DNA of 33,047 bases from Dehalococcoidia bacterium (GTDB lineage: Bacteria > Chloroflexota > Dehalococcoidia > Tepidiformales > Tepidiformaceae): NCBI GenBank assembly GCA_022827945.1, contig JAJEIT010000096.1, forward strand, positions 1 to 33,047, written 5' to 3'. The translations under genes and the position numbers were made by a program. The notes below the pieces were generated by a model that saw only the letters and a program-made list of their open reading frames with translations, was not told the DNA's origin and ran no database searches. This document shows, piece by piece, positions 5,924-27,202 of this stretch; position 1 is the first letter of the stretch, and every line of letters starts with the position of its first letter.

Positions 5924-6235
5924 ATGCCGGCGGACCTTGAAGCGATCGTGGCCGCGGCGAGACGAGGAGAGTTGCGTCTTTCGGATCACTACGAGAGCGA
6001 GCGGTTAGGCCTCCCAGACCGTCCCTCCTACACCGAGATTCTCTCCGGGCTGGAAGACGGGTCGCCGAAGGTTGCCTCCGACGATGAAGGTCGAAACGAT
6101 CCTCGGGGACCGGTGTGTGCGATCACCTACGAGGGACCTGACGGCCAGCGTTTTGTCGTTCGCCTAAACTATGAGGCACGACCGATACGCGTGATCACCG
6201 CCTTCCGGGCAGAAGGGCAGGAGCGAGATGACTGA
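5924..6235 (+). CDS. DUF4258-like small protein, possible toxin-type fold
   Basis: A 103-residue protein with the layout of DUF4258: an N-terminal helix, then RLSDHYESERL (His at about 21), a helical SYTEILSGLEDG block, and paired strands ending NYEARPIRVITAF. Members of this group have a RelE-like appearance and are often encoded with small partner genes; toxin activity has not been shown for most. The ATG follows the nuoN stop by 16 bases, and the 3' end overlaps the next gene by 8 bases (ATGACTGA). It uses more AT-ending codons than the nuo genes, which suggests it joined the end of the complex I operon later. Confidence 0.6.
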   Translation: MPADLEAIVAAARRGELRLSDHYESERLGLPDRPSYTEILSGLEDGSPKVASDDEGRNDPRGPVCAITYEGPDGQRFVVRLNYEARPIRVITAFRAEGQERDD

Positions 6236-6926
6236 ATACGTCTCCCCGCAGGCCCTGTCCGTGTACACCCAAGGGGACTGTGTCTGGCGCGAAGTGTTCC
6301 CCGTGATCATCGCCGAAGACGGCGAGCGGTTGCTGTCGCACGACACTGCCCTGAAGGTGGAAGAGCGCCACAAGCACTACCGGCAGCTGGCCGAGCGCGA
6401 CGAGCTCCCCGAGCCCACTGCGCGCGTTCAGCCTCCACCCGAGCCGCGGCCGTGGCCGCCCCGCGTGATCGAAACGCGCCCCGAGTCAGTGGCGGTGCAT
6501 GAGGAGGGCGGTCGCGTGTGGGAAGAGGAGTTCCCCGCCATCGTGTATAGCGACGGGCACGTCACTTTCGAGATCGCCATCGCCCACGAGATCGAGGCGC
6601 GCCGGGCGCACTACGCCGAACTGGCCGGCCGGGGCGGTCTGCCCGAGCCGACCGGACGCACCCGACCGCGCCCCGAGGCTCCGAGGGCGCCCTGCATTGT
6701 CGCCACCCGTACCCAGGCCGTTCCCGTCTACCAGGAGGGCAACCGGCTCTGGCAGGAGGACTTCCCCGTCGTCGTGTACGACAACGGCGAAGTCGCCCTG
6801 GAGGATGCAGTCCTTCGCACCTGGGAAAAGCGCCAGAAGCACTACCTGAAACTCGCGAAGGAGGGCAGGCTTCCCGGGCCCTCCGAGACATCGGCGAAGG
6901 GCTCGCACGAGGCTGCGGGCGGCTAG
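6228..6926 (+). CDS. Unknown protein of three tandem ~77-residue repeats
   Basis: A 232-residue soluble protein I do not recognise. It consists of three consecutive units. Equivalent residues are Trp20/98/175, Phe-Pro 24-25/102-103/179-180, His-Tyr 50-51/128-129/205-206 and Leu-Pro 60-61/138-139/215-216, giving periods of 78 and 77. Each unit reads roughly as a strand, a W-x-E-x-F-P strand pair with a (D/N)G turn, a helix ending in HYxxLA, and an LPxP linker followed by Pro/Arg-rich sequence. There is no signal peptide or membrane helix. The start has an AGGAG motif at about 6221 and overlaps the DUF4258-like gene by 8 bases. Its stop shares CTAG with the convergent gene at 6923. Confidence 0.75.
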   Translation: MTEYVSPQALSVYTQGDCVWREVFPVIIAEDGERLLSHDTALKVEERHKHYRQLAERDELPEPTARVQPPPEPRPWPPRVIETRPESVAVHEEGGRVWEEEFPAIVYSDGHVTFEIAIAHEIEARRAHYAELAGRGGLPEPTGRTRPRPEAPRAPCIVATRTQAVPVYQEGNRLWQEDFPVVVYDNGEVALEDAVLRTWEKRQKHYLKLAKEGRLPGPSETSAKGSHEAAGG

Positions 6927-9430: not shown

Positions 9431-10646
9431 GACGACCGGAACCTACCGTGAGCGCCCGCTCGACGGGCGCACCATCGCCCTCGGCGTCACCGGCAGCATC
9501 TCCGCCTACAAGGCCGCCGACCTGGCGAGCAAGCTGCGCCAGGCGGGCGCCAGCGTCGAGGTGCTGATGACGGAGGCGGCGACGCGCTTCATCGCGCCGC
9601 TCACCTTCCAGTCGCTCACGGGACAGGAAGCGATCGTGGATATGTTCGAGACGGAGGAGGCGGAGGCGCACGTCGAGGTCGCACGCCGCGCCGACGGGTT
9701 CCTGATCGCTCCGGCCACGGCCGACTGCCTGGCGCGCCTCGCCTACGGCGGCGGCGGCGACATGGTGACGCTGACCGCGCTCGCGACGACGGCGCCGGTC
9801 GTTGTCGCCCCCGCCATGGACTCGCAGATGTGGGCGAACACGGCGGTGGAGGCGAACGTCGCGGCGCTCATCGAGCGCGGCGTCGAGGTGGTGGGACCGG
9901 CCGAGGGACGGCTCGCCAGCGGGCGCTTCGGGGCGGGGCGCCTGGCCGAGACGCCGGCGATCCTCGGGGCGGTGCGTGCGGCCATCGGCCGGCGCGAGGG
10001 CGACCTCTGCGGGCGGGCGGTCATCGTCACGGCGGGCGGAACGCAGGAGCCGCTCGACCCCGTCCGCTACATCGGCAACCGCTCGAGCGGGCGCATGGGC
10101 TTCTCCATCGCGGCCGCCGCCCGCGACCGCGGGGCAAGGGTGTCGCTGGTCACCGGGCCGTCCCAGCTCACGACGCCCTACGGCGTGGACCGGGTCGACG
10201 TGAAGACGGTCGAGGAGATGCTGGGAGCGCTGGAACCGCTGACCGAGCGCTGCGACGCGCTCCTGATGGCGGCGGCGCCCGCCGACTTCCGTCCCGCCGA
10301 AGCGTCCGGCCAGAAGATCAAGAAGGCCACCCTCAACGAGGACGACATGACGCTGCCCCTGACGGAGACGCCGGACATCATCTCGACGCTCCCGGGAGGC
10401 GGCGTGCGGGTCGCGTTCGCCGCCGAAACCGAGAATCTGAAAGCGAACGCGACAGCCAAGCTGGCGGCCAAGCGCGCCGACTTCATCGTCGCGAACGACG
10501 TGACGGCGGCAGGCAGCGGTTTCGGCACGGAGACGAACGAGGTCACGATCTTCCACCGCGAGGGCGAGGCGGAGCGGCTGCCGCTCCTGAGCAAGTACGC
10601 CGTTGCCCACGCGATTCTCGACCGGGTGGCGGCGCGGCTGGGGTAG
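9411..10646 (+). CDS. coaBC: Bifunctional phosphopantothenoylcysteine decarboxylase / phosphopantothenate-cysteine ligase
   Basis: Joins phosphopantothenate to cysteine (CoaB) and decarboxylates the product (CoaC). The protein has 411 residues. The CoaC half (about 20-190) has the FMN-binding GVTGSISAYKA, the catalytic His87 in EAHVEVA, and PAMDSQMW with Asp137 where many homologs have Asn. The clamp LASGRFGAGRL has Ser170 where E. coli has Cys. The CoaB half (about 200-410) has VTAGGTQEPLDPVRYIGNRSSGRMG, the ADFRPAEASGQKIKK region and FIVANDV. As I recall, the Asp/Ser combination also occurs in other phyla, so the enzyme is probably intact. It overlaps coaX by 20 bases. Confidence 0.95.
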   Translation: MTSTVAETTGTYRERPLDGRTIALGVTGSISAYKAADLASKLRQAGASVEVLMTEAATRFIAPLTFQSLTGQEAIVDMFETEEAEAHVEVARRADGFLIAPATADCLARLAYGGGGDMVTLTALATTAPVVVAPAMDSQMWANTAVEANVAALIERGVEVVGPAEGRLASGRFGAGRLAETPAILGAVRAAIGRREGDLCGRAVIVTAGGTQEPLDPVRYIGNRSSGRMGFSIAAAARDRGARVSLVTGPSQLTTPYGVDRVDVKTVEEMLGALEPLTERCDALLMAAAPADFRPAEASGQKIKKATLNEDDMTLPLTETPDIISTLPGGGVRVAFAAETENLKANATAKLAAKRADFIVANDVTAAGSGFGTETNEVTIFHREGEAERLPLLSKYAVAHAILDRVAARLG

Positions 10647-10658
10647 GGGCTGTTGGCT

Positions 10659-10863
10659 ACTAGTAGCCTTGGGCTACTTACTAGCAGCCTGTTGCGGGTC
10701 AAGCCCGCTGCAAGCTTCACTAGCAGCCTTCAGGCCTTTACTAGCAGCCTTTGACCGATCCCTCATCGCTTGTCGAAACACACTAGCGACCCTGCGACGA
10801 CTTGGCCGCTACTAGCAGCCTCTCGACCTTTACTGTCACCCTGAGCGCTTATACTATCAGCCT
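10659..10863 (+). repeat. Array of eight 11-bp elements, mostly at 21-bp phase
   Basis: The consensus ACTAGCAGCCT occurs exactly at 10680, 10719, 10740 and 10811. One-base variants lie at 10659 (ACTAGTAGCCT) and 10853 (ACTATCAGCCT). Looser copies lie at 10782 (ACTAGCGACCCT, one base longer) and 10832 (ACTGTCACCCT). All are in the same orientation. Start-to-start distances are 21, 39, 21, 42, 29, 21 and 21, so most copies face the same side of the helix. The first copy sits inside a perfect 14-bp palindrome, GGCTACTAGTAGCC. The last copies overlap the putative -10 box and reach to one base before the ATPase start. This looks like a protein-binding array, either operators or iterons. Confidence 0.85.
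10850..10855 (+). promoter_or_regulatory. Putative -10 box (TATACT) of the AAA ATPase gene
   Basis: TATACT ends 9 bases before the ATG and overlaps the eighth repeat copy, so a protein bound to the array would cover the promoter. TTTACT at 10829-10834 is a possible -35 but the 15-base spacer is short. Confidence 0.5.
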
Positions 10864-10864
10864 G

Positions 10865-12160
10865 ATGGCCGACGACCGGGAGAACTACATCCAAGCGCAA
10901 GCCGACGCGGCAAGCGCCCGCCCCATTCTTGCGACGGTCTTCAACCCCGCAGGCCCCGTCGGGCATAGTGACCTCTTCCAGGGGAGGCAGAGACAGATCG
11001 AACGCATCCTGTCAGCAGTCGGACAGCACGGCCAACACGTCATCCTGTTCGGCGAGCGAGGGGTAGGCAAGACGTCCCTCGCAAGTCTGACCCACGAGTT
11101 CTGGGCCAGCTACGCACGAGAGGCCACCGGTTTCCTCGCGCTCCGCTACAACTGCGATCCCGACGACACCTTCGGAACGATCTGGGCCCGCATCGCCGAA
11201 CTCCTGGCCGACGAGTACGCCAGACAGGGCCGCACCCGCCCCACCAATGACACTTGGGAAGAGCTCTATGCCGAGATCACTCACGAAGCCGGCACTCCTC
11301 ACTCTGTTCGTAGGCTGCTCGATCTCACCGGTGAGATGCTCATCATTGTGGTCGACGAGTTCGACCAAGTGCTCGACGACACCACAGTCCAGCAGTTCGC
11401 GAGCCTCATCAAGGCCCTATCCGACTACCTAGCCCTCACCACTCTGATACTGGTGGGCGTAGCAGACACTGTCGATGATCTGATCGAAGATCACGCATCG
11501 ATCAACCGGGCCACTATCCAGGTCGCACTTCCCAGGATGTCACAGCGAGAGCTGCGGGACATCATCCAGAGTCGCTACGACCGCGCAGGCCTCATGGCCT
11601 CCCCCGAGACGCTTGACCGCATGGCATGGCTAGCTCAAGGACTCCCACACTACGCACACCGCCTTGGGCAGGAAGCGGGATTCTCGGCAGTCGACCGCTC
11701 ATCCCCGACCGTTGCTGAGGACGACGTGGACCGAGCTGTCGGAGTGGCCGTCGAACACTCTCAGGAGAGCATCCGGACGGCATATCGCAACGCGACGGTG
11801 AGCCCCCAACCCCAGGCCCTCTTCAAGACAGTCCTCCTCGCCTCTGCACTGACTCCGACGGATGAACTAGGGTACTTCGCACCGGCCGACGTCCGCGATC
11901 CCCTGCACCGCCTCACGGGCCAGCCATACGACTATCCTCAGTTCGTCCGCCACCTGAAACACTTCACTCTGTCGGAGCGAGGTGAGGTACTTGAGGCGAC
12001 CGGTCAGGCTCGTAAGTGGCGCTACCGGTTCGCGGACCCACTGCTACGGCCCTACGTCGTCCTTAGCGCCATCGCGGATGGCACACTCGCCTTTCCCAGG
12101 CTGTACGAACTGAGTCCGCAGGTCGACGAAGACGACAGCGGGCAGCCACGGCTGCTGTAG
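10865..12160 (+). CDS. Orc1/Cdc6-like or STAND-like AAA ATPase, unknown role
   Basis: A 431-residue soluble ATPase. An N-terminal adaptor (VFNPAGPVGHSDLFQGRQ, about 25-42) is followed by Walker A GERGVGKTS (63-71), Walker B LIIVVDEFD (159-167), a sensor-1-like LVGVADTVDDLI (about 196), and GLPHYAHRLG (259-268), a small-domain motif seen in ATP-binding proteins of this kind. The C-terminal third contains PQFVRHLKHFTLSERGEVLE and RYRFADPLLRPYV, which look like a winged-helix domain. It sits alone between coaBC and the cysteine genes and uses visibly more AT-ending codons than they do, which suggests transfer. The start follows the repeat array directly. It could be a replication-type initiator, a regulator or a defence protein; the sequence does not decide. 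Confidence 0.8.
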   Translation: MADDRENYIQAQADAASARPILATVFNPAGPVGHSDLFQGRQRQIERILSAVGQHGQHVILFGERGVGKTSLASLTHEFWASYAREATGFLALRYNCDPDDTFGTIWARIAELLADEYARQGRTRPTNDTWEELYAEITHEAGTPHSVRRLLDLTGEMLIIVVDEFDQVLDDTTVQQFASLIKALSDYLALTTLILVGVADTVDDLIEDHASINRATIQVALPRMSQRELRDIIQSRYDRAGLMASPETLDRMAWLAQGLPHYAHRLGQEAGFSAVDRSSPTVAEDDVDRAVGVAVEHSQESIRTAYRNATVSPQPQALFKTVLLASALTPTDELGYFAPADVRDPLHRLTGQPYDYPQFVRHLKHFTLSERGEVLEATGQARKWRYRFADPLLRPYVVLSAIADGTLAFPRLYELSPQVDEDDSGQPRLL

Positions 12161-12187
12161 CGATAGCCACTAGTCCACTACGTGACG

Positions 12188-17691: not shown

Positions 17692-18867
17692 CTACCCCCG
17701 TGGCAGGCCGAGGCCGCGGGTGGCCATGATGTTGCGCTGGATCTCGCTCGTGCCCGCCTCGACCGTGTTCGCGGCGGAGCGCAGGAACACCTGGGCCTGG
17801 TCGAACCAGACGCGCGAGGACTCGCCGCGCAGCATTCCGGACATGCCGAGGATGTGCATGCCGGTGAGCTGCAGGCGCTGGTTCAGCTCGCTGCCGAAGA
17901 GCTTGCTGGCGCTCGCTTCGTGGTTCGGGACGAGACCCTGCGCCTGCATCGTGGCGACGCGGTAGGCGAGGAACGTGCCGACGTTCACCTCGATGGCGCG
18001 CTCGGCGAGCTCGGTGCGGATGGTCTTGCGGTGCCGCCAGAGTTCCGGGCGCTCCTCGACCAGCCTCGTGAAGCGCTCGATCGTGCGACGGCCGCCGGCG
18101 TAGGCGCCGATGCCGCTGCGCTCGAAGTCGAGGGCCACGGCGAGGTGGTACCAGCCCCGGTTCTCCTCCCCGACGCGCTGCTCGACAGGCACGCGCACGT
18201 CCTCGAAGAAGACCTCGTTGAAGCTGTGCTGATCGCCGAGGTTGATGAGCGGCTGCACGGTGATCCCGGGCGACTTCATGTCGAGCATGAGGAGCGAGAT
18301 GCCCTTGTGCTTGGGGGCATCGGCGTCGGTGCGGGCGGCCAGCCAGCCCCAGTCGGCGAGATGGCCGCCGGAGGTCCAGATCTTCTGCCCGTTGATCACG
18401 TAGTCGTCGCCGTCACGGACGGCGCTGGTCTGCAGGGAGGCGAGGTCGCTGCCGGCGCCGGGCTCGCTGTAGAGCGTGCACCACCACTGGTCGGCGCTGG
18501 TGATCGGCGGGATGTACTTCTGCTTCTGCTCCTCGGTGCCGTAGAGCATGAGCGAGGGGCCAACCCAGGCGATGCCCATGTTTCCGACGGGCGCCCCGGC
18601 GTAGGACATCTCCTCGTTGTAGACGAGCTGGCGCATGTGCGGCGCGCCGCCGCCCCCGTACTCCTTCGGCCAGGCCATCGCGAGCCAGCCGCGCTCGGCG
18701 AGCTTCTTCTGGAAGCCCATCGTGTAGTCGTACTCTTCCTGGTTCGTCTCGAAGCCGCCGCGCCGGGCGCGCTCGAGGCGCTCCTCCTCGGGAGGCAGCT
18801 CTTCGGCGATGAACTGGCGCACCTCGGCGCGGAAGGATTCGACGTCGCTTTCGTGGGTGAAGCGCAT
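17692..18867 (-). CDS. Acyl-CoA dehydrogenase, copy A
   Basis: An FAD-dependent acyl-CoA dehydrogenase of 391 residues, alpha/beta-oxidation type fold. Visible are LYSEPGAGSDLASLQTSA (about 133-150, the FAD-contact segment), INGQKIWTSGGHLADW (about 158), FNEVFFEDVRVP (about 216) and the C-terminal EAGTSEIQRNIMATRGLGLPRG. The residue before the GT of GTSEIQ is Gly/Ala rather than the Glu base of medium-chain enzymes, as in many members of this subgroup, so the base must lie elsewhere. By my count about 340 of 391 residues match copy B at 19390-20565. The ATG is 32 bases after a TAGACT box shared with copy B. Confidence 0.92.
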   Translation of the reverse strand: MRFTHESDVESFRAEVRQFIAEELPPEEERLERARRGGFETNQEEYDYTMGFQKKLAERGWLAMAWPKEYGGGGAPHMRQLVYNEEMSYAGAPVGNMGIAWVGPSLMLYGTEEQKQKYIPPITSADQWWCTLYSEPGAGSDLASLQTSAVRDGDDYVINGQKIWTSGGHLADWGWLAARTDADAPKHKGISLLMLDMKSPGITVQPLINLGDQHSFNEVFFEDVRVPVEQRVGEENRGWYHLAVALDFERSGIGAYAGGRRTIERFTRLVEERPELWRHRKTIRTELAERAIEVNVGTFLAYRVATMQAQGLVPNHEASASKLFGSELNQRLQLTGMHILGMSGMLRGESSRVWFDQAQVFLRSAANTVEAGTSEIQRNIMATRGLGLPRG

Positions 18868-19389: not shown

Positions 19390-20565
<1,176 letters not shown>

Positions 20566-20593
20566 GGCGGGGCTCCAGGCAGGAAGTGCGGCG

Positions 20594-20599
20594 AGTCTA
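20594..20599 (-). promoter_or_regulatory. Putative -10 box (TAGACT) of acyl-CoA dehydrogenase copy B
   Basis: The same CTAGACTCGC block as before copy A, here 28 bases upstream of the ATG. It may allow transcription of copy B and hicBA independently of the SDR gene upstream. Confidence 0.45.
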
Positions 20600-20629
20600 G
20601 CAGGGGACGGACGGGCGGGCCTGCCGCGG

Positions 20630-21391
20630 CTAGCCGGCGGTCGTCTTGGGCCGGACGGCGCCCTGCTCGCGCAGGTCGGCGATGGTGACGACCTGGCCGG
20701 TGTAGTCGAGCGGCTGTTTCGCCATCCAGAGGACGGCGTCGGACATGATGACGGGGTCCTCGAAGTCGGAGCGGTCGACGTCGCCGAGGGTGAAGGCGTA
20801 GCCCTCGGTCCAGACGCCAAGCTCGAGGCGGATGCAGTTCACCGCCACGGAATCCTCGAGCTCGATCGCGAAGCCCTCGGTCATCGCCTCGAGGGCGCGC
20901 TTCGTGGTCGTGTAGCTGATGCGGCGGAAGCCGGGGTTCACGGACGCGCCGGACGAGATGTTGATGACGCGGCCCTCGCCCGCCTCGCGCATGCGCGGGC
21001 AGAAGTAGTAGATGAGGTAGAAGGGGCCGTGGATGTTGATGTCGGTGGCCAGCCGCCAGCGCTTCGTCGAATTCTCGAGGGTGGCGCCGGGGACGCCGAC
21101 GGCGGCGTTGTTGATGAGCAGGTCGCAGCGGCCGAAGCGCTCGTAGACCGTGTCGGCGAGGGCGGCGACCGCTTCCTCGTCGCGCACGTCGAGGGGGGCG
21201 ACGAGGACGTCGGCGCCCTGCTCGCGGGCGAGCTCGGCGGTCTCGTCGATGGTGCCGGGGAGCCTGGCGGGGGAGTCGGCCGTCGAGCGCGCGCAGACGA
21301 CGAGGTCGTAGCCATCGGCGGCGAGGTCGATGGCGAGCTGCTTGCCGATGCCACGGCTGGCGCCGGTGATGAGCGCAACGGGTTTCGACAC
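20630..21391 (-). CDS. Short-chain dehydrogenase/reductase (SDR)
   Basis: A 253-residue NAD(P)-dependent oxidoreductase with a Rossmann fold. The nucleotide loop is TGASRGIG (about 9-16), followed by LLINNAAVG (about 92), the catalytic Ser region INISSGASVN and YTTTK (Tyr and Lys of YxxxK). Start GTG 21391 is preferred: GGAGG lies just upstream and the Rossmann strand begins at once. A longer frame to 21487 would add non-family residues. The gene leads the block SDR, acyl-CoA dehydrogenase B, hicBA, acyl-CoA dehydrogenase A, phosphatase. Two operator-like dyads lie upstream. A 3-hydroxyacyl-CoA or related alcohol substrate is plausible but unproven. Confidence 0.88.
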   Translation of the reverse strand: MSKPVALITGASRGIGKQLAIDLAADGYDLVVCARSTADSPARLPGTIDETAELAREQGADVLVAPLDVRDEEAVAALADTVYERFGRCDLLINNAAVGVPGATLENSTKRWRLATDINIHGPFYLIYYFCPRMREAGEGRVINISSGASVNPGFRRISYTTTKRALEAMTEGFAIELEDSVAVNCIRLELGVWTEGYAFTLGDVDRSDFEDPVIMSDAVLWMAKQPLDYTGQVVTIADLREQGAVRPKTTAG

Positions 21392-24010: not shown

Positions 24011-24086
24011 CAGGCCCTCCCGTCACGAACGATCGTAGGTGGCCGCCGGCCGTGGCTCAAAGCTCGCGTCTGCCAGCGCCAGCCGC

Positions 24087-24092
24087 TACCTT
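24087..24092 (+). promoter_or_regulatory. Putative -10 box (TACCTT) of the DNA glycosylase gene
   Basis: TACCTT ends 6 bases before GTG 24099. It fits the leaderless pattern seen before other genes here and supports that start. Confidence 0.4.
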
Positions 24093-24098
24093 CCTCCG

Positions 24099-24767
24099 GT
24101 GGCGGCGACGATCGATACGGAACGGGCAGTGGCGCACCTGCGCCGGGCGGACGCGGTGATGGACATGGTGATCGAGGCGGTGGGGCCGCCGCGGCTGCGC
24201 GAGCCGTCGCCGACGGCGTTCCAGGCGCTGGCGCGCTCGATCATCTTCCAGCAGCTGAGCGGGAAGGCGGCGAGCACGATTCTCGGGCGCTTCGTCGCGA
24301 TGTTTCGCGAGGGGGCGACCGCCGAAGACGCGGTGAGCGGCTTCTTCCCCGAGCCGGGGCAGATTCTCGCGCTCGACGACGAGGCGATGCGCGGGGCGGG
24401 CGTGTCGCGGCAGAAGGCGGCGGCGCTGCGGGACCTGGCGGAGCACTTCGCGGAGGGGAAGCTCAGCATCGAGCGCTTCGGGGAGTGGAGCGACGAGGAG
24501 GTCATCGAGCACCTGCTGCCGGTGCGCGGCATCGGGCGCTGGACGGCACAGATGTTCCTGATGTTCCAGCTGCGGCGGCCGGATGTGCTGCCGACCGCCG
24601 ACGTGGGTCTGAACCGCGCGATGATGCGCCTCTACGGGCTCGACGCGCCGGCGACACCCGAGGAGGTCGAGCGCATCGGGGCGCCCTGGCACCCGTGGGC
24701 GACGCTCGCCTGCTGGTACCTCTGGCGCAGCGAGGACGTCATCCTGCCGCTGGGGGACCCGGCGTGA
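24099..24767 (+). CDS. DNA-3-methyladenine glycosylase, AlkA-type (HhH-GPD)
   Basis: Removes alkylated purines from DNA in base-excision repair. The protein has 222 residues and lacks the N-terminal TBP-like domain of E. coli AlkA, as many bacterial members do. The core is clear: FQALARSIIFQQLSGKAASTIL (about 45-66), the helix-hairpin-helix LLPVRGIGRWTAQMFLMF (about 141-158), and the catalytic Asp in LPTADVGLNRAM (about 168). There is no iron-sulfur cluster cysteine set. GTG 24099 is preferred over an earlier in-frame ATG because of the box at 24087. The stop overlaps the next start in GTGA. Confidence 0.88.
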   Translation: MAATIDTERAVAHLRRADAVMDMVIEAVGPPRLREPSPTAFQALARSIIFQQLSGKAASTILGRFVAMFREGATAEDAVSGFFPEPGQILALDDEAMRGAGVSRQKAAALRDLAEHFAEGKLSIERFGEWSDEEVIEHLLPVRGIGRWTAQMFLMFQLRRPDVLPTADVGLNRAMMRLYGLDAPATPEEVERIGAPWHPWATLACWYLWRSEDVILPLGDPA

Positions 24768-25651
24768 GCATCCTCATCGACGAGTCGACGCGCATCCTCG
24801 TGCTCGGCATCACGGGCCGGGAGGCGGTCTCTTTCACGCGCGACACGCTCGACTACGGGGGGCAGGTGGTGGCGGGGGTCACGCCCGGGCGGGGCGGCCG
24901 CGACGTACACGGCGTGCCCGTCTACGACACCGTGCGGGAGGCGGCGGGGGAACACGGGCCGAACGCGGCGGTCATCGCGGTGCCGCCGCGGGCGCTGCGC
25001 GACGCCGCCTTCGAGTGCATCGCCTACGGCATCCCGCTCGTCGTCATCGTGACGGAGCGCGTCCCACGGCTGGACGCAGCGCAGGTGGTGGAGCTGGCGG
25101 AACGGGAGGGCGTGCGCGTCATCGGTCCGAACAGCATGGGGCTCATCTCGCCGGACAAGACGAAGGTCGGGAGCGTGGGCGGTCCCGCCGCCGACACCGC
25201 GCGCAGCTTCGTGCGCGGGAACGTCGGCATCATGTCGCGCTCGGGCGGGATGACGACGGAGATCGCGAGCCTGCTGGCGCAGCACGACCTCGGGGTCTCG
25301 ACGGCGATCTCGATCGGGGGCGACCCGATTACGGGGTCGTCGTTCGCGAGCCTGCTGCCCCTCTTCGAGGCGGACCCCGAGACCGAGGCGGTCGTCACCT
25401 TCAGCGAGCCGGGCGGGGCCATGGAGGCGGAGCTGGTCGAGGTGATCCGGCAGCGGGGGACACGGCTGCGCATCGTCAGCTTCATCGCGGGGAACTTCAT
25501 GGCGGAGATGCCGGGCGTGCGCTTCGGTCACGCGGGAGCGCTCGTACAGCGCGACGAAGACAGCGCGGCGGCGAAAGCGTCGATGCTGCGGGAGGCGGGG
25601 GTCCGCGTGGCGGACGCGCTGGCGGAGATCCCGGCGCTGGTGCGGGGGTAG
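24764..25651 (+). CDS. Succinyl-CoA ligase alpha-subunit-like protein
   Basis: A 295-residue protein of the SucD family. It shows the CoA-binding Rossmann half (ILVLGITGREAVSF, GVTPGRGGRDVHGVPVYDTV), GPNSMGLISPDKTKVG (121-136), GIMSRSGGMTTEIASLL (about 155-171), ISIGGDPITGSSFA, Glu215 in FSEPGG, and the phosphohistidine region PGVRFGHAGAL with His256. These residues are consistent with an active phospho-carrier subunit. No ATP-grasp beta subunit (SucC) is next to it, so its partner is elsewhere or it acts on another acid. GTG 24764 overlaps the glycosylase stop by four bases. The last 51 bases are repeated at 26246-26296. Confidence 0.85.
   Translation: MSILIDESTRILVLGITGREAVSFTRDTLDYGGQVVAGVTPGRGGRDVHGVPVYDTVREAAGEHGPNAAVIAVPPRALRDAAFECIAYGIPLVVIVTERVPRLDAAQVVELAEREGVRVIGPNSMGLISPDKTKVGSVGGPAADTARSFVRGNVGIMSRSGGMTTEIASLLAQHDLGVSTAISIGGDPITGSSFASLLPLFEADPETEAVVTFSEPGGAMEAELVEVIRQRGTRLRIVSFIAGNFMAEMPGVRFGHAGALVQRDEDSAAAKASMLREAGVRVADALAEIPALVRG
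25601..25651 (+). repeat. Direct repeat, left copy (3' end of the sucD-like gene)
   Basis: The last 51 bases of the sucD-like gene, including its TAG. They match 26246-26296 at 47 of 51 positions, with only one mismatch in the last 42. Copies are 645 bases apart. Confidence 0.85.
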
Positions 25652-25655
25652 GGCG

Positions 25656-25904
25656 TCAGGCCGGGACTGAGGGCGCCGCCAGGCTTCGGAGCTGCTCGTG
25701 CAACTCCTCCTCGTCGAGGTCGCCCCGCGAGGCTTCCGTCAGCAGCAAGGCGACGCTCCACCCAAGGTCTACGGCGTCGGCAGCGCCATCCTCTTGCCAC
25801 ACCAACGGCGTAAGCCATTCGGTGATCTGCTTCCGATCAACCTTACCGGAGAGGTAACTCTTGATCATGGCACGTACATCGGCTGCGGTGTAAACCTCTG
25901 CCAT
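25656..25904 (-). CDS. Unknown 82-residue acidic protein
   Basis: I do not recognise a family. The protein is soluble and mostly helical: YTAADVRAMIKSYLSGKVDRKQITEWLTPLVW, an acidic turn, then a long helix VDLGWSVALLLTEASRGDLDEEELHEQLRSLA. ATG 25904 is chosen over TTG 25910 because AAGGGAG lies about 7 bases upstream of it. The shape resembles small antitoxin or immunity proteins, but that is a guess. It lies inside the 645-base segment flanked by the duplicated gene end and is divergent from the next small gene. Codon use is more AT-rich than in the flanking ligase gene. Confidence 0.6.
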   Translation of the reverse strand: MAEVYTAADVRAMIKSYLSGKVDRKQITEWLTPLVWQEDGAADAVDLGWSVALLLTEASRGDLDEEELHEQLRSLAAPSVPA

Positions 25905-26060
25905 GACCAACTCCCTTCCCGTCCGGTGGGCTCCCGCCAGCTACCTGCGGAGGCTCTTCAATGAGAGAGAGGCGGCTTGCTGAAGCGGCCCCCTCAGGTG
26001 AGATTACCACCAGCCATTGGACGCGACAGGCATCCCGCGCACTCCAGGGCAGGGGAACCC

Positions 26061-26222
26061 GTGTGCACACGAAGTCAACTGATCACGTACTTCGATGCCG
26101 ACGGACGCCGGGTCGCGATCGTCCACCAGTACCTGCGAAGGGACGGAACCCTGGGCGCATCCGGTCTCCCCGACCCGAAGTGGCTCCTCCACGAGGGCGA
26201 AGTGCTGATCCCCGAGGAGTAA
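26061..26222 (+). CDS. Unknown 53-residue small protein
   Basis: A short strand-rich protein: LITYFDADGRRVAIVHQYLRRDGTLGASGLPDPKWLLHEGEVLIP. I remember the YLRPDGTLGASGRPDPK-type motif from small uncharacterised proteins in several bacterial phyla. Start GTG 26061 follows AGGGGAA closely; the frame is open back to 25977 but the conserved part begins only here. It is inside the segment between the direct repeats, 156 bases from the divergent gene. Promoter boxes were not convincing. Confidence 0.55.
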   Translation: MCTRSQLITYFDADGRRVAIVHQYLRRDGTLGASGLPDPKWLLHEGEVLIPEE

Positions 26223-26245
26223 GTTCCGGGTTGCACGCGGCCCGC

Positions 26246-26296
26246 GCCCGCGCCGCGGACGCGCTGGCGGAGATCCCGGCGCTGGTGCGGGAGTAG
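26246..26296 (+). pseudogene. Duplicated 3' end of the sucD-like gene (remnant / direct repeat right copy)
   Basis: These bases encode RAADALAEIPALVRE followed by TAG, against RVADALAEIPALVRG and TAG in the sucD-like gene. Sequence before 26246 shows no similarity, so no complete gene is present. It is either the remains of a second ligase gene or the duplicated target at the end of an inserted segment. Identity over 42 bases is interrupted once. Confidence 0.75.
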
Positions 26297-26326
26297 CGAT
26301 TCCCGGGCGGCGCCTCAAGGGGGTGT

Positions 26327-27202
26327 CTAGGGTGCTGGAGCAGCACCGCCCGCCTCGACACAGGCCTCAACCGTCGCAAAGCTGCGCACAGGACCTGCTA
26401 TGCCGGTTCCAGGCGCCAGCGAACTGCTGGGCGTACACACTCCGTCGAGCAGGTAGGTCACAGCGGGGGCGTAGTAGCCTCGGTCGAAGAACGAGAGGGT
26501 CAGATTCTTCTCATACCCCGTGATCTCGATGTCCCCCCAGAGGCGGTATCCGATATAGAACTCCCACAGCCGTGACGTCCGCAGCTCGCCGGCGTCATCC
26601 ACCCAGAGGCACACCGCGCTCACGGCGAGTCTCTCGAACTCCCGGAAGTACGCCGCCCCCCATCCCGGTGGGTGCACCCCGGGGCATGGAGCGGGGCCAT
26701 CCAGCCGGTACCACGGCAGCGTTGAGAGCGGAATCGTTCCGGTGATGTCGCCATAGCGATATTGGCCGTTCGTGCTCAACCCGTCGTCGAGGCTCAGTCC
26801 CACTCTCCCCAACATCAGCCGCGAGGCTCCCTGTGGTCGGGCGCTGATATCGAAGCGCTGGTCGTTCTCCAGGTGCTGATAGATACGCACGTCGATGTAG
26901 GCAGGGGGTTCATCCCGCTGGGGCGCCTCTATCCGGAAGTCGCCGAAGCGGTATCGCCCTTCACGTCCGTCGTCCAGCAGGAGCGGAGTCGTTCCCAGCA
27001 CGGTCCACGACCCTTCGGCCAGCCGAGCGCTCACCCAGACATCGCCGGCATCCTCGAGATTCTGCCAGACCCGAACCTGGAACCTGAGTGGCGATTCGGC
27101 TCGTGCGGTCTCGGTTTCAGCCAGCGACAGGATGGTCGCCATGACGAGGGAAAGGGCGAACCCGGCTGCCAGCAACGCCGTCCGCCCGTGGAGTTTCGAC
27201 AA
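26327..27202 (-). CDS. Secreted protein with two related beta repeats, probable TTG start
   Basis: A 291-residue exported protein. TTG 27202 gives a good signal peptide: basic start (SKLHGR), hydrophobic ALLAAGFALSLVMATILSL, likely cleavage after about residue 35. Two related units follow: RFQVRVWQNLEDAGDVWVSARL...PLLLDDGREGRYRFGDF (about 40-90) and YIDVRIYQHLENDQRFDISARP...LSLDDGLSTNGQYRYGDI (about 98-152). The second half (about 160-291) contains three Cys and a Trp/Tyr-rich domain I cannot name. I recall this repeat from Dehalococcoidia-like proteins. It starts 5 bases after lipA, so it is probably cotranscribed. No ATG/GTG start fits the signal peptide. Confidence 0.75.
   Translation of the reverse strand: MSKLHGRTALLAAGFALSLVMATILSLAETETARAESPLRFQVRVWQNLEDAGDVWVSARLAEGSWTVLGTTPLLLDDGREGRYRFGDFRIEAPQRDEPPAYIDVRIYQHLENDQRFDISARPQGASRLMLGRVGLSLDDGLSTNGQYRYGDITGTIPLSTLPWYRLDGPAPCPGVHPPGWGAAYFREFERLAVSAVCLWVDDAGELRTSRLWEFYIGYRLWGDIEITGYEKNLTLSFFDRGYYAPAVTYLLDGVCTPSSSLAPGTGIAGPVRSFATVEACVEAGGAAPAP

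What the first reader, a model, noticed from the sequence alone, without database searches (positions are those of the whole stretch)
10659..12160. Phased array of eight 11-bp elements leading straight into an AAA ATPase gene
Four exact and four variant copies of ACTAGCAGCCT lie in one orientation, with spacings of 21, 39, 21, 42, 29, 21 and 21 bases. The last copies cover the putative -10 box and end one base before the start codon. The encoded protein has Walker A/B motifs and an Orc1/Cdc6-like layout with a probable winged helix. Directional, helically phased sites beside an ATPase gene resemble iterons of a replicon or a multi-site autoregulatory operator. The gene interrupts the coaBC to cysE region and has different codon use. 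I know no described system with this repeat.
Basis: partly seen in the sequence, partly recalled or inferred. Interest (0 to 1): 0.75.

Follow-up and report, generated by a model that had tools for sequence, protein, structure and literature searches.

The report
Phage-linked ATPase gene with phased operator
A small travelling gene for an ATPase related in shape to origin-recognition proteins carries its own switch, a row of short DNA repeats set two helix turns apart; relatives in phages and other bacteria keep the spacing even where the repeat's letters differ, which suggests that the protein controls its own gene.

Summary
The eight 11-bp elements exist as described: four exact, four variant, one orientation, all spacings correct. 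All four exact copies in the genome lie here. They form three blocks, phased within blocks (21 or 42 bp) but shifted by 39- and 29-bp steps. The last copy overlaps a TATACT -10 box and ends one base before the ATG. Compared with related genomes, array plus ATPase gene is one 1,522-bp insert between coaBC and cysE, ending 2 bp after the ATPase stop.

The main new result is comparative. Relatives of this ATPase (32-63% identical) in bacterial chromosomes, a mycobacteriophage, plasmids and viral contigs often carry direct repeats exactly 21 bp apart upstream of the gene: 20 of 45 loci, against about 2 at other spacings. The motif changes between members (ACTAGCAG, ACTTGCAG, TTAGATGAA, AGTCAACG, ATTAGCGG); the helical spacing persists. 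Distant relatives lack it.

The predicted protein is an AAA+ domain plus winged helix, closest to archaeal ATPases and Cdc6/Orc1. Best reading: a self-bound multi-site operator of a mobile, probably phage-defence, ATPase. Binding and defence are inferred, not shown. The replicon (iteron) reading is not supported. New variant of a known kind.

The parts
10641..12162 (.). 1,522-bp insert (array + ATPase gene) absent from the coaBC-cysE junction of close relatives
   Evidence: blastn against L122 and L124 (coaBC 97-98% identical): homology runs to window 10640 and resumes at 12163, with 2 bp in its place
10659..10669 (+). repeat 1, ACTAGTAGCCT (block 1)
   Evidence: sequence
10680..10690 (+). repeat 2, ACTAGCAGCCT (block 1, +21)
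   Evidence: sequence
10719..10729 (+). repeat 3, ACTAGCAGCCT (block 2, +39)
   Evidence: sequence
10740..10750 (+). repeat 4, ACTAGCAGCCT (block 2, +21)
   Evidence: sequence
10782..10793 (+). repeat 5, degenerate ACTAGCGACCCT (block 2, +42)
   Evidence: sequence
10811..10821 (+). repeat 6, ACTAGCAGCCT (block 3, +29)
   Evidence: sequence
10832..10842 (+). repeat 7, ACTGTCACCCT (block 3, +21), at the presumed -35 region
   Evidence: sequence; the homologue L020 has ACTGGCAGTCG at the corresponding place
10853..10863 (+). repeat 8, ACTATCAGCCT (block 3, +21), overlapping the -10 box
   Evidence: sequence; the homologue L020 has TATACTAGCACTT at the corresponding place
10850..10855 (+). probable -10 box TATACT; the ATG follows 9 bases later, so the mRNA may be leaderless
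   Evidence: sequence; same TATACT at nearly the same place in L020; inferred, no transcript data
10865..12160 (+). 431-aa AAA+/nSTAND-like ATPase with C-terminal winged helix
11051..11077 (+). Walker A, GERGVGKTS (residues 63-71)
   Evidence: nearly invariant in homologues
11339..11359 (+). Walker B region ending in D164-E165 (both invariant)
11822..12031 (+). predicted winged helix (residues 320-389): helices 320-329, 340-351, 357-366 and a wing hairpin 376-389
   Evidence: AlphaFold2 model

Best explanation
The array is the operator of the ATPase gene and travels with it. ATPase protomers, through the C-terminal winged helix, are proposed to bind the direct repeats; sites two helical turns apart put neighbouring protomers on the same face of DNA so that their AAA+ domains can assemble cooperatively. 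Because the sites cover the promoter up to the -10 box, assembly would repress transcription and hold the protein at a low level; ATP state or an infection cue would disassemble the complex and release expression. The gene is a phage/plasmid-borne cargo gene, most likely a phage-defence ATPase. Shown: the array, its uniqueness, the insert boundaries, the helical spacing shared by homologues in unrelated hosts, the change of motif between members. Predicted: the fold. Inferred: self-binding, repression, induction, defence.
For: In 45 non-identical upstream regions of the closer family, a repeated 8-mer (at most one mismatch) at lag 21 occurs in 20; lags outside the helical set average 2.05 (sd 1.23, maximum 5), shuffles average 2.9 (maximum 8 in 300); lags 20, 31 and 42 are also raised (6, 4, 7 loci). 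Sites at 21/21 in mycobacteriophage Kevin1 gp30 (ACTTGCAG, ACTGGCAC, ACTTGCAG) and in L104, L095, L118, L073, L088, L101; 21/21/21 in L056; 10/10/10 in L080; 10/10/20 in L046; 31 in L106. Motif letters differ while spacing holds. ACT[AGT]GCA: 17 on the gene's strand, 0 on the other. Hosts are unrelated, so the ATPase is the common factor. In Kevin1 the triplet occurs only upstream of gp30. The same-genus homologue (63% identical) sits at another locus with its own array. The insert is exactly array plus gene. Winged helix predicted at high confidence. One close homologue found after the hypothesis was set, L267, shows CCTTG at 20/21/20 (read by eye). Defence context: Kevin1 is a cluster N phage, whose central genes are lysogenically expressed and implicated in defence; distant members lie in the P2 gpA-gpQ defence hotspot.
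Against: No binding or expression data. About half of the close loci do not pass the lag test singly, and one supported clade of three (L024, L045, L072) and some others (L023, L076, L097) show no clear array. The site lists were picked by eye; only the lag statistics are objective. The recognition helix looks conserved across members with different motifs, so the source of specificity is unknown. No PADLOC model matches the window protein at E 0.001.
Confidence: 0.65

Rival explanations
1. The array binds another regulator, a host or phage transcription factor, that controls the cargo gene.
For: Temperate phages carry repressors near these genes, and many wHTH/HTH regulators bind direct repeats spaced by whole turns (e.g. 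SARP-LAL, PMC5930380).
Against: Arrays occur in bacterial chromosomes, a mycobacteriophage, a Salinibacter plasmid and viral contigs; no other gene is evidently shared. In Kevin1 the phased triplet occurs nowhere else, unlike a global repressor site. The motif varies with the ATPase, not visibly with the host.
Confidence: 0.2
2. Iterons: the array and the ATPase form an origin and initiator of a replicon, now integrated.
For: Repeat spacing of 21 bp is close to iteron spacing (general knowledge); the fold resembles Cdc6/Orc1.
Against: The insert holds nothing but array and gene; Kevin1 has separate annotated replication initiation proteins (gp62, gp63); score for the Orc1/Cdc6 model is 48 bits against a cut-off of 181; arrays lie close to or over the start of the gene.
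Confidence: 0.06
3. Transposition module: a TnsC/TniB/MuB-like ATPase with transposase-type end repeats, moved by a transposase in trans.
For: The unit has moved between loci; TnsC and MuB are among structural matches; TniB scores just under its Pfam cut-off, 21.6 against 22.4.
Against: Repeats on one side only, no transposase, no clear target duplication; arrays sit at the gene start also in relatives that lie inside phages.
Confidence: 0.05
4. The repeats are mere promoter parts (repeated -35/-10 pieces) with no bound regulator.
For: ACT is shared with TATACT, and 21 bp is near the -35 to -10 spacing.
Against: Eight copies reach 206 bp upstream; in relatives motifs such as TTAGATGAA or ATTAGCGG do not look like promoter hexamers and 10-bp and 31-bp spacings occur.
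Confidence: 0.04

Closest known systems
Archaeal Walker-type ATPases (2qen, 2fna/SSO1545) and Cdc6/Orc1 (2qby, 2v1u, 1w5t)
   Same: AAA+ core with lid and C-terminal winged helix; best structural matches, Z 18-22 over about 330 residues
   Different: Only 15-18% identity, rmsd 6-9 (domains arranged differently); no archaeal or replication context
nSTAND1 NTPases (PF20703) and phrog_6841
   Same: Passes the Pfam cut-off (54.5 against 27.1 bits); phrog_6841 covers nearly the whole protein (E 5e-38); RefSeq names the distant E. coli member nSTAND1 NTPase
   Different: No extra sensor or effector domain beyond the winged helix; phrog_6841 has no known function
MalT, a STAND transcription regulator (PMC10427625)
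   Same: ATP-binding oligomer that binds several promoter sites cooperatively; oligomerisation needed for binding; MalT is a structural match over residues 31-300 (8bob, Z 14.8)
   Different: MalT has its own sensor domain and a separate DNA-binding effector domain and activates other genes
SARP-LAL regulators such as PimR (PMC5930380)
   Same: Monomers bind direct repeats one turn (11 bp) apart, same face, cooperatively, at a promoter
   Different: Different domain make-up; activates another gene; spacing 11 rather than 21 bp
Prophage defence cargo: P2-like gpA-gpQ hotspot (PMC9122126) and cluster N mycobacteriophage central region (PMC6426596, PMC10700106)
   Same: Members of the wider family lie in exactly these regions
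   Different: No member of this family was found described as tested in the parts of the papers read; the window copy is chromosomal

Membership tests
Orc1/Cdc6 replication initiators | AAA+ domain followed by winged helix | tested here: met
   AlphaFold2 model and structure search; prediction only
Orc1/Cdc6 replication initiators | Score above the curated family cut-off (TIGR02928) | tested here: not met
   48.3 bits against 181.3
Orc1/Cdc6 replication initiators | Initiates replication at its sites | not testable with these tools
   needs marker frequency or plasmid replication assay
nSTAND1 (PF20703) | Score above Pfam gathering cut-off | tested here: met
   54.5 bits against 27.1, residues 34-253
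STAND signal-transduction ATPases in the full sense | Separate sensor/repeat or effector domain beside the NTPase module | tested here: not met
   431-aa model holds AAA+ and winged helix only
Phased direct-repeat operators (as for SARP or MalT) | Several direct repeats at whole-turn spacing at the promoter | tested here: met
   21-bp spacing in the window and 20 of 45 family upstreams
Phased direct-repeat operators (as for SARP or MalT) | Sites bound by the regulator and required for control | not testable with these tools
   needs EMSA, footprint, reporter
Iteron replicons | Repeats next to a Rep/initiator gene of a recognised family in a replicon | tested here: not met
   insert is array plus ATPase only; no recognised Rep family above cut-off, no other plasmid gene
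Known anti-phage systems (PADLOC-DB 2.0.0) | Match of the window protein to a system model | tested here: not met
   no hit at E 0.001; relatives match mad8 and PDC-S59 only weakly
TnsC/TniB/MuB transposition ATPases | Family score and partner transposase with element ends on both sides | tested here: not met
   TniB 21.6 bits, cut-off 22.4; insert has no other gene
Integron gene cassettes | attC site next to the gene | not tested
   attC-like flanks seen by eye only at distant homologues L011 and L013

The most novel reading that the evidence does not exclude
The array is more than an operator: it is a docking scaffold on which an inactive ORC-like ATPase oligomer is parked, and displacement by invading-phage activity both releases the protein as the active defence oligomer and switches on its gene, a DNA-tethered immune sentinel whose DNA site and protein travel and diverge together.
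Probability: 0.15. Interest if true: 0.85.

Novelty: new variant of a known kind. Interest (0 to 1): 0.6.

Why it matters
A family of phage- and plasmid-borne ATPases (phrog_6841 and relatives, function unknown) appears to carry a private, helically phased binding array that changes its letters but not its spacing. That gives a direct handle on an uncharacterised family: it predicts the DNA target of each member, offers natural protein-site pairs for specificity swaps, and makes the origin-recognition-like ATPase fold testable as an autoregulated, possibly defensive, switch outside replication.

Tried and rejected
Searching for array-ATPase pairs in Actinomycetota genomes through a plasmid locus: the 'of' option takes only genome handles. 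Single-protein scans of viral contigs with P0001 or Kevin1 gp30 found nothing; alignments did. Three further scans, meant as a held-out replication, returned almost only already known close loci plus distant ones, so the viral set is near exhausted; the only later close homologue was L267. Upstream regions of neighbouring ORFs were a poor control, as codon periodicity raises lags divisible by three (46 of 328 at lag 21); shuffles and other lags were used instead. At first, loci on the minus strand were read unflipped, which hid the repeats of L021, L022 and L034; corrected. Literature searches for this repeat/ATPase pairing found no description; the library holds open papers only. Iteron replicon, transposase ends and plain promoter pieces were considered and ranked low. 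A family missing from the structure-match list was not taken as excluded.

Full report
Observation. The sequence was read directly and searched. Four exact copies of ACTAGCAGCCT (10680, 10719, 10740, 10811) and four variants (10659, 10782, 10832, 10853) lie in one orientation with the reported spacings. In the 2.85-Mb genome the four exact copies are the only exact ones. ACTNGCA-N14-ACTNGCA is found three times in nine genomes of the genus, always upstream of this ATPase, against 13 hits of the reversed control. Within the array, 21- and 42-bp steps are whole turns; 39 and 29 bp are not, so there are three phased blocks (1-2, 3-4-5, 6-7-8). Repeat 8 shares ACT with TATACT, and the ATG follows at once, as expected of a leaderless gene (inference).

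Insertion. In relatives of the genus with 97-98% identical coaBC, coaBC runs straight to cysE. BLAST of those junctions to the window matches up to 10640 and again from 12163, with 2 bp between. The insert (1,522 bp) thus spans the stop codon of coaBC, the array and the ATPase gene, and stops 2 bp after the ATPase stop. The gene and array are poorer in GC (63% and 56%) than coaBC (72%) and cysE (72%). In G004, of the same genus, a 63% identical ATPase lies at a different locus (next to a gene like the window's DNA-glycosylase-like gene at 24039-24767) and is preceded by two pairs ACTGGCAGTCG / ACTAGCACTT, 21 bp apart within each pair. In G007 the coaBC-cysE gap holds no ATPase but a short stretch CTACTAGCACTTCTC like the G004 array, possibly a scar.

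Protein. Pfam places residues 34-253 in nSTAND1 (54.5 bits, cut-off 27.1) and AAA_16; the Orc1/Cdc6 model TIGR02928 matches well below its cut-off. PHROGs puts it, Kevin1 gp30, the Salmonella phage-plasmid protein and an integron-like homologue into phrog_6841, function unknown. An AlphaFold2 model on 35 sequences has mean pLDDT 91.9 and shows an AAA+ core, a lid and a C-terminal winged helix (residues 320-389). Best solved matches are archaeal ATPase 2qen (Z 21.8, 331 residues, rmsd 6.4) and Cdc6/Orc1 2qby (Z 20.9), then TnsC (16.9) and MalT (14.8); Foldseek ranks Cdc6 first. The large rmsd values mean the domains are arranged differently.

Homologues and their upstream DNA. Relatives came from whole genomes of the class and phylum, viral contigs, phages and plasmids. 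Phased repeats appear again and again: Kevin1 gp30 ACTTGCAG-21-ACTGGCAC-21-ACTTGCAG; L056 four sites 21 apart; L104 three ACTTGG, 21 apart; L095, L118, L073 three sites; L088 TTAGA three times, 21 apart; L101 AGTCA three times; L057 ATTRCAG three times; L102, L096, L094, L085, L092, L082 two sites; L080 ATTAGCGG four times at 10 bp; L046 ACTTG at 10, 10, 20; L043 31, 21; L106 31; L093 20. These lists were picked by eye.

Statistics. The objective test asks in how many of 45 non-identical upstream regions (180 bp) an 8-mer recurs with at most one mismatch at a given lag. Lag 21: 20 loci. Lags outside the helical set: mean 2.05, sd 1.23, maximum 5. First-order Markov shuffles at lag 21: mean 2.9, maximum 8 of 300. 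Lags 20, 31 and 42: 6, 4 and 7. Thirteen distant homologues: none at lag 21; 19 distant ones from later scans, partly the same: one, mean over lags 0.84. ACTTG occurs 35 times on the gene's strand and 11 on the other; ACT[AGT]GCA 17 and 0. The loci share ancestry, but end branches are long (median 0.54 changes per column), so these are mostly separate observations. On the tree arrays are spread through the 42-row clade that holds the window and absent from the outer clades (array labels by eye). Not all close members pass: the L024/L045/L072 clade, L023, L076 and L097 show nothing clear. L267, which turned up last, shows CCTTG at 20/21/20.

Why the ATPase itself. The hosts and carriers are unrelated; only the ATPase is evidently common to the arrays. 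The repeat letters differ between members while the spacing stays at whole turns, as expected if site and reader change together but the geometry of a protein assembly is fixed. The protein has a predicted DNA-binding domain. In Kevin1 the phased triplet is found nowhere else in the genome. Precedents for the way of working: MalT, a STAND protein whose oligomerisation is needed for binding several promoter sites (PMC10427625), and SARP-LAL regulators whose monomers bind same-face direct repeats cooperatively (PMC5930380). This is a likeness of working, not membership.

Role. Kevin1 gp30 lies between the lysis genes and the integrase. Kevin1 is a cluster N phage (reference list of PMC10700106), and centrally located cluster N genes are expressed in lysogens and implicated in defence (PMC6426596; PMC10700106). 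Distant members in a Salmonella phage-plasmid and in E. coli lie between the replication endonuclease and portal genes, the P2 hotspot of PMC9122126; 4 of 5,426 E. coli genomes hold a full copy. Gordonia phage Cashline and L095 carry the gene near an integrase. PADLOC has no model for it. Defence is therefore a reasonable guess (about 0.5), not a result.

Verdict. What would settle it is a binding and a reporter experiment.

Noticed in passing
L125 (G007), coaBC-cysE gap: No ATPase but GGGCGAACGC...CTACTAGCACTTCTC, resembling the G004 (L020) array; possibly a scar of a lost copy at the same site.
   Followed up: partly
L011, L013, L015, L017 (distant homologues): ATPase genes flanked by attC-like or GTTGGCGG/CCGCCAAC inverted segments, as in integron-type cassettes.
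   Followed up: no
L024, L045, L047 downstream of the ATPase: A convergent small gene whose translated end looks alike (lysine/arginine-rich, ...KKLSKKRRSEIAKKAAQARW in L047) seems to follow the ATPase in all three, a possible partner or shared integration context.
   Followed up: no
L082, L088, L096: Copies of the repeat also occur in inverted orientation (CAAGTA with TACTTG; GTTCATCTAA with TTAGATGAAC), so orientation is not fixed in the whole family.
   Followed up: partly
window 6228-6926: A protein with three repeats of a VY..G...W.E.FPV(I/V).....G module, function unknown.
   Followed up: no
window 17692-18867 and 19390-20820 (minus strand): Two closely similar acyl-CoA dehydrogenase-like genes near each other, an apparent duplication.
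   Followed up: no
window 25300-26380: The end of a CoA-binding-like gene (ADALAEIPALVRG) is repeated downstream as a fragment (ADALAEIPALVRE), a partial duplication.
   Followed up: no
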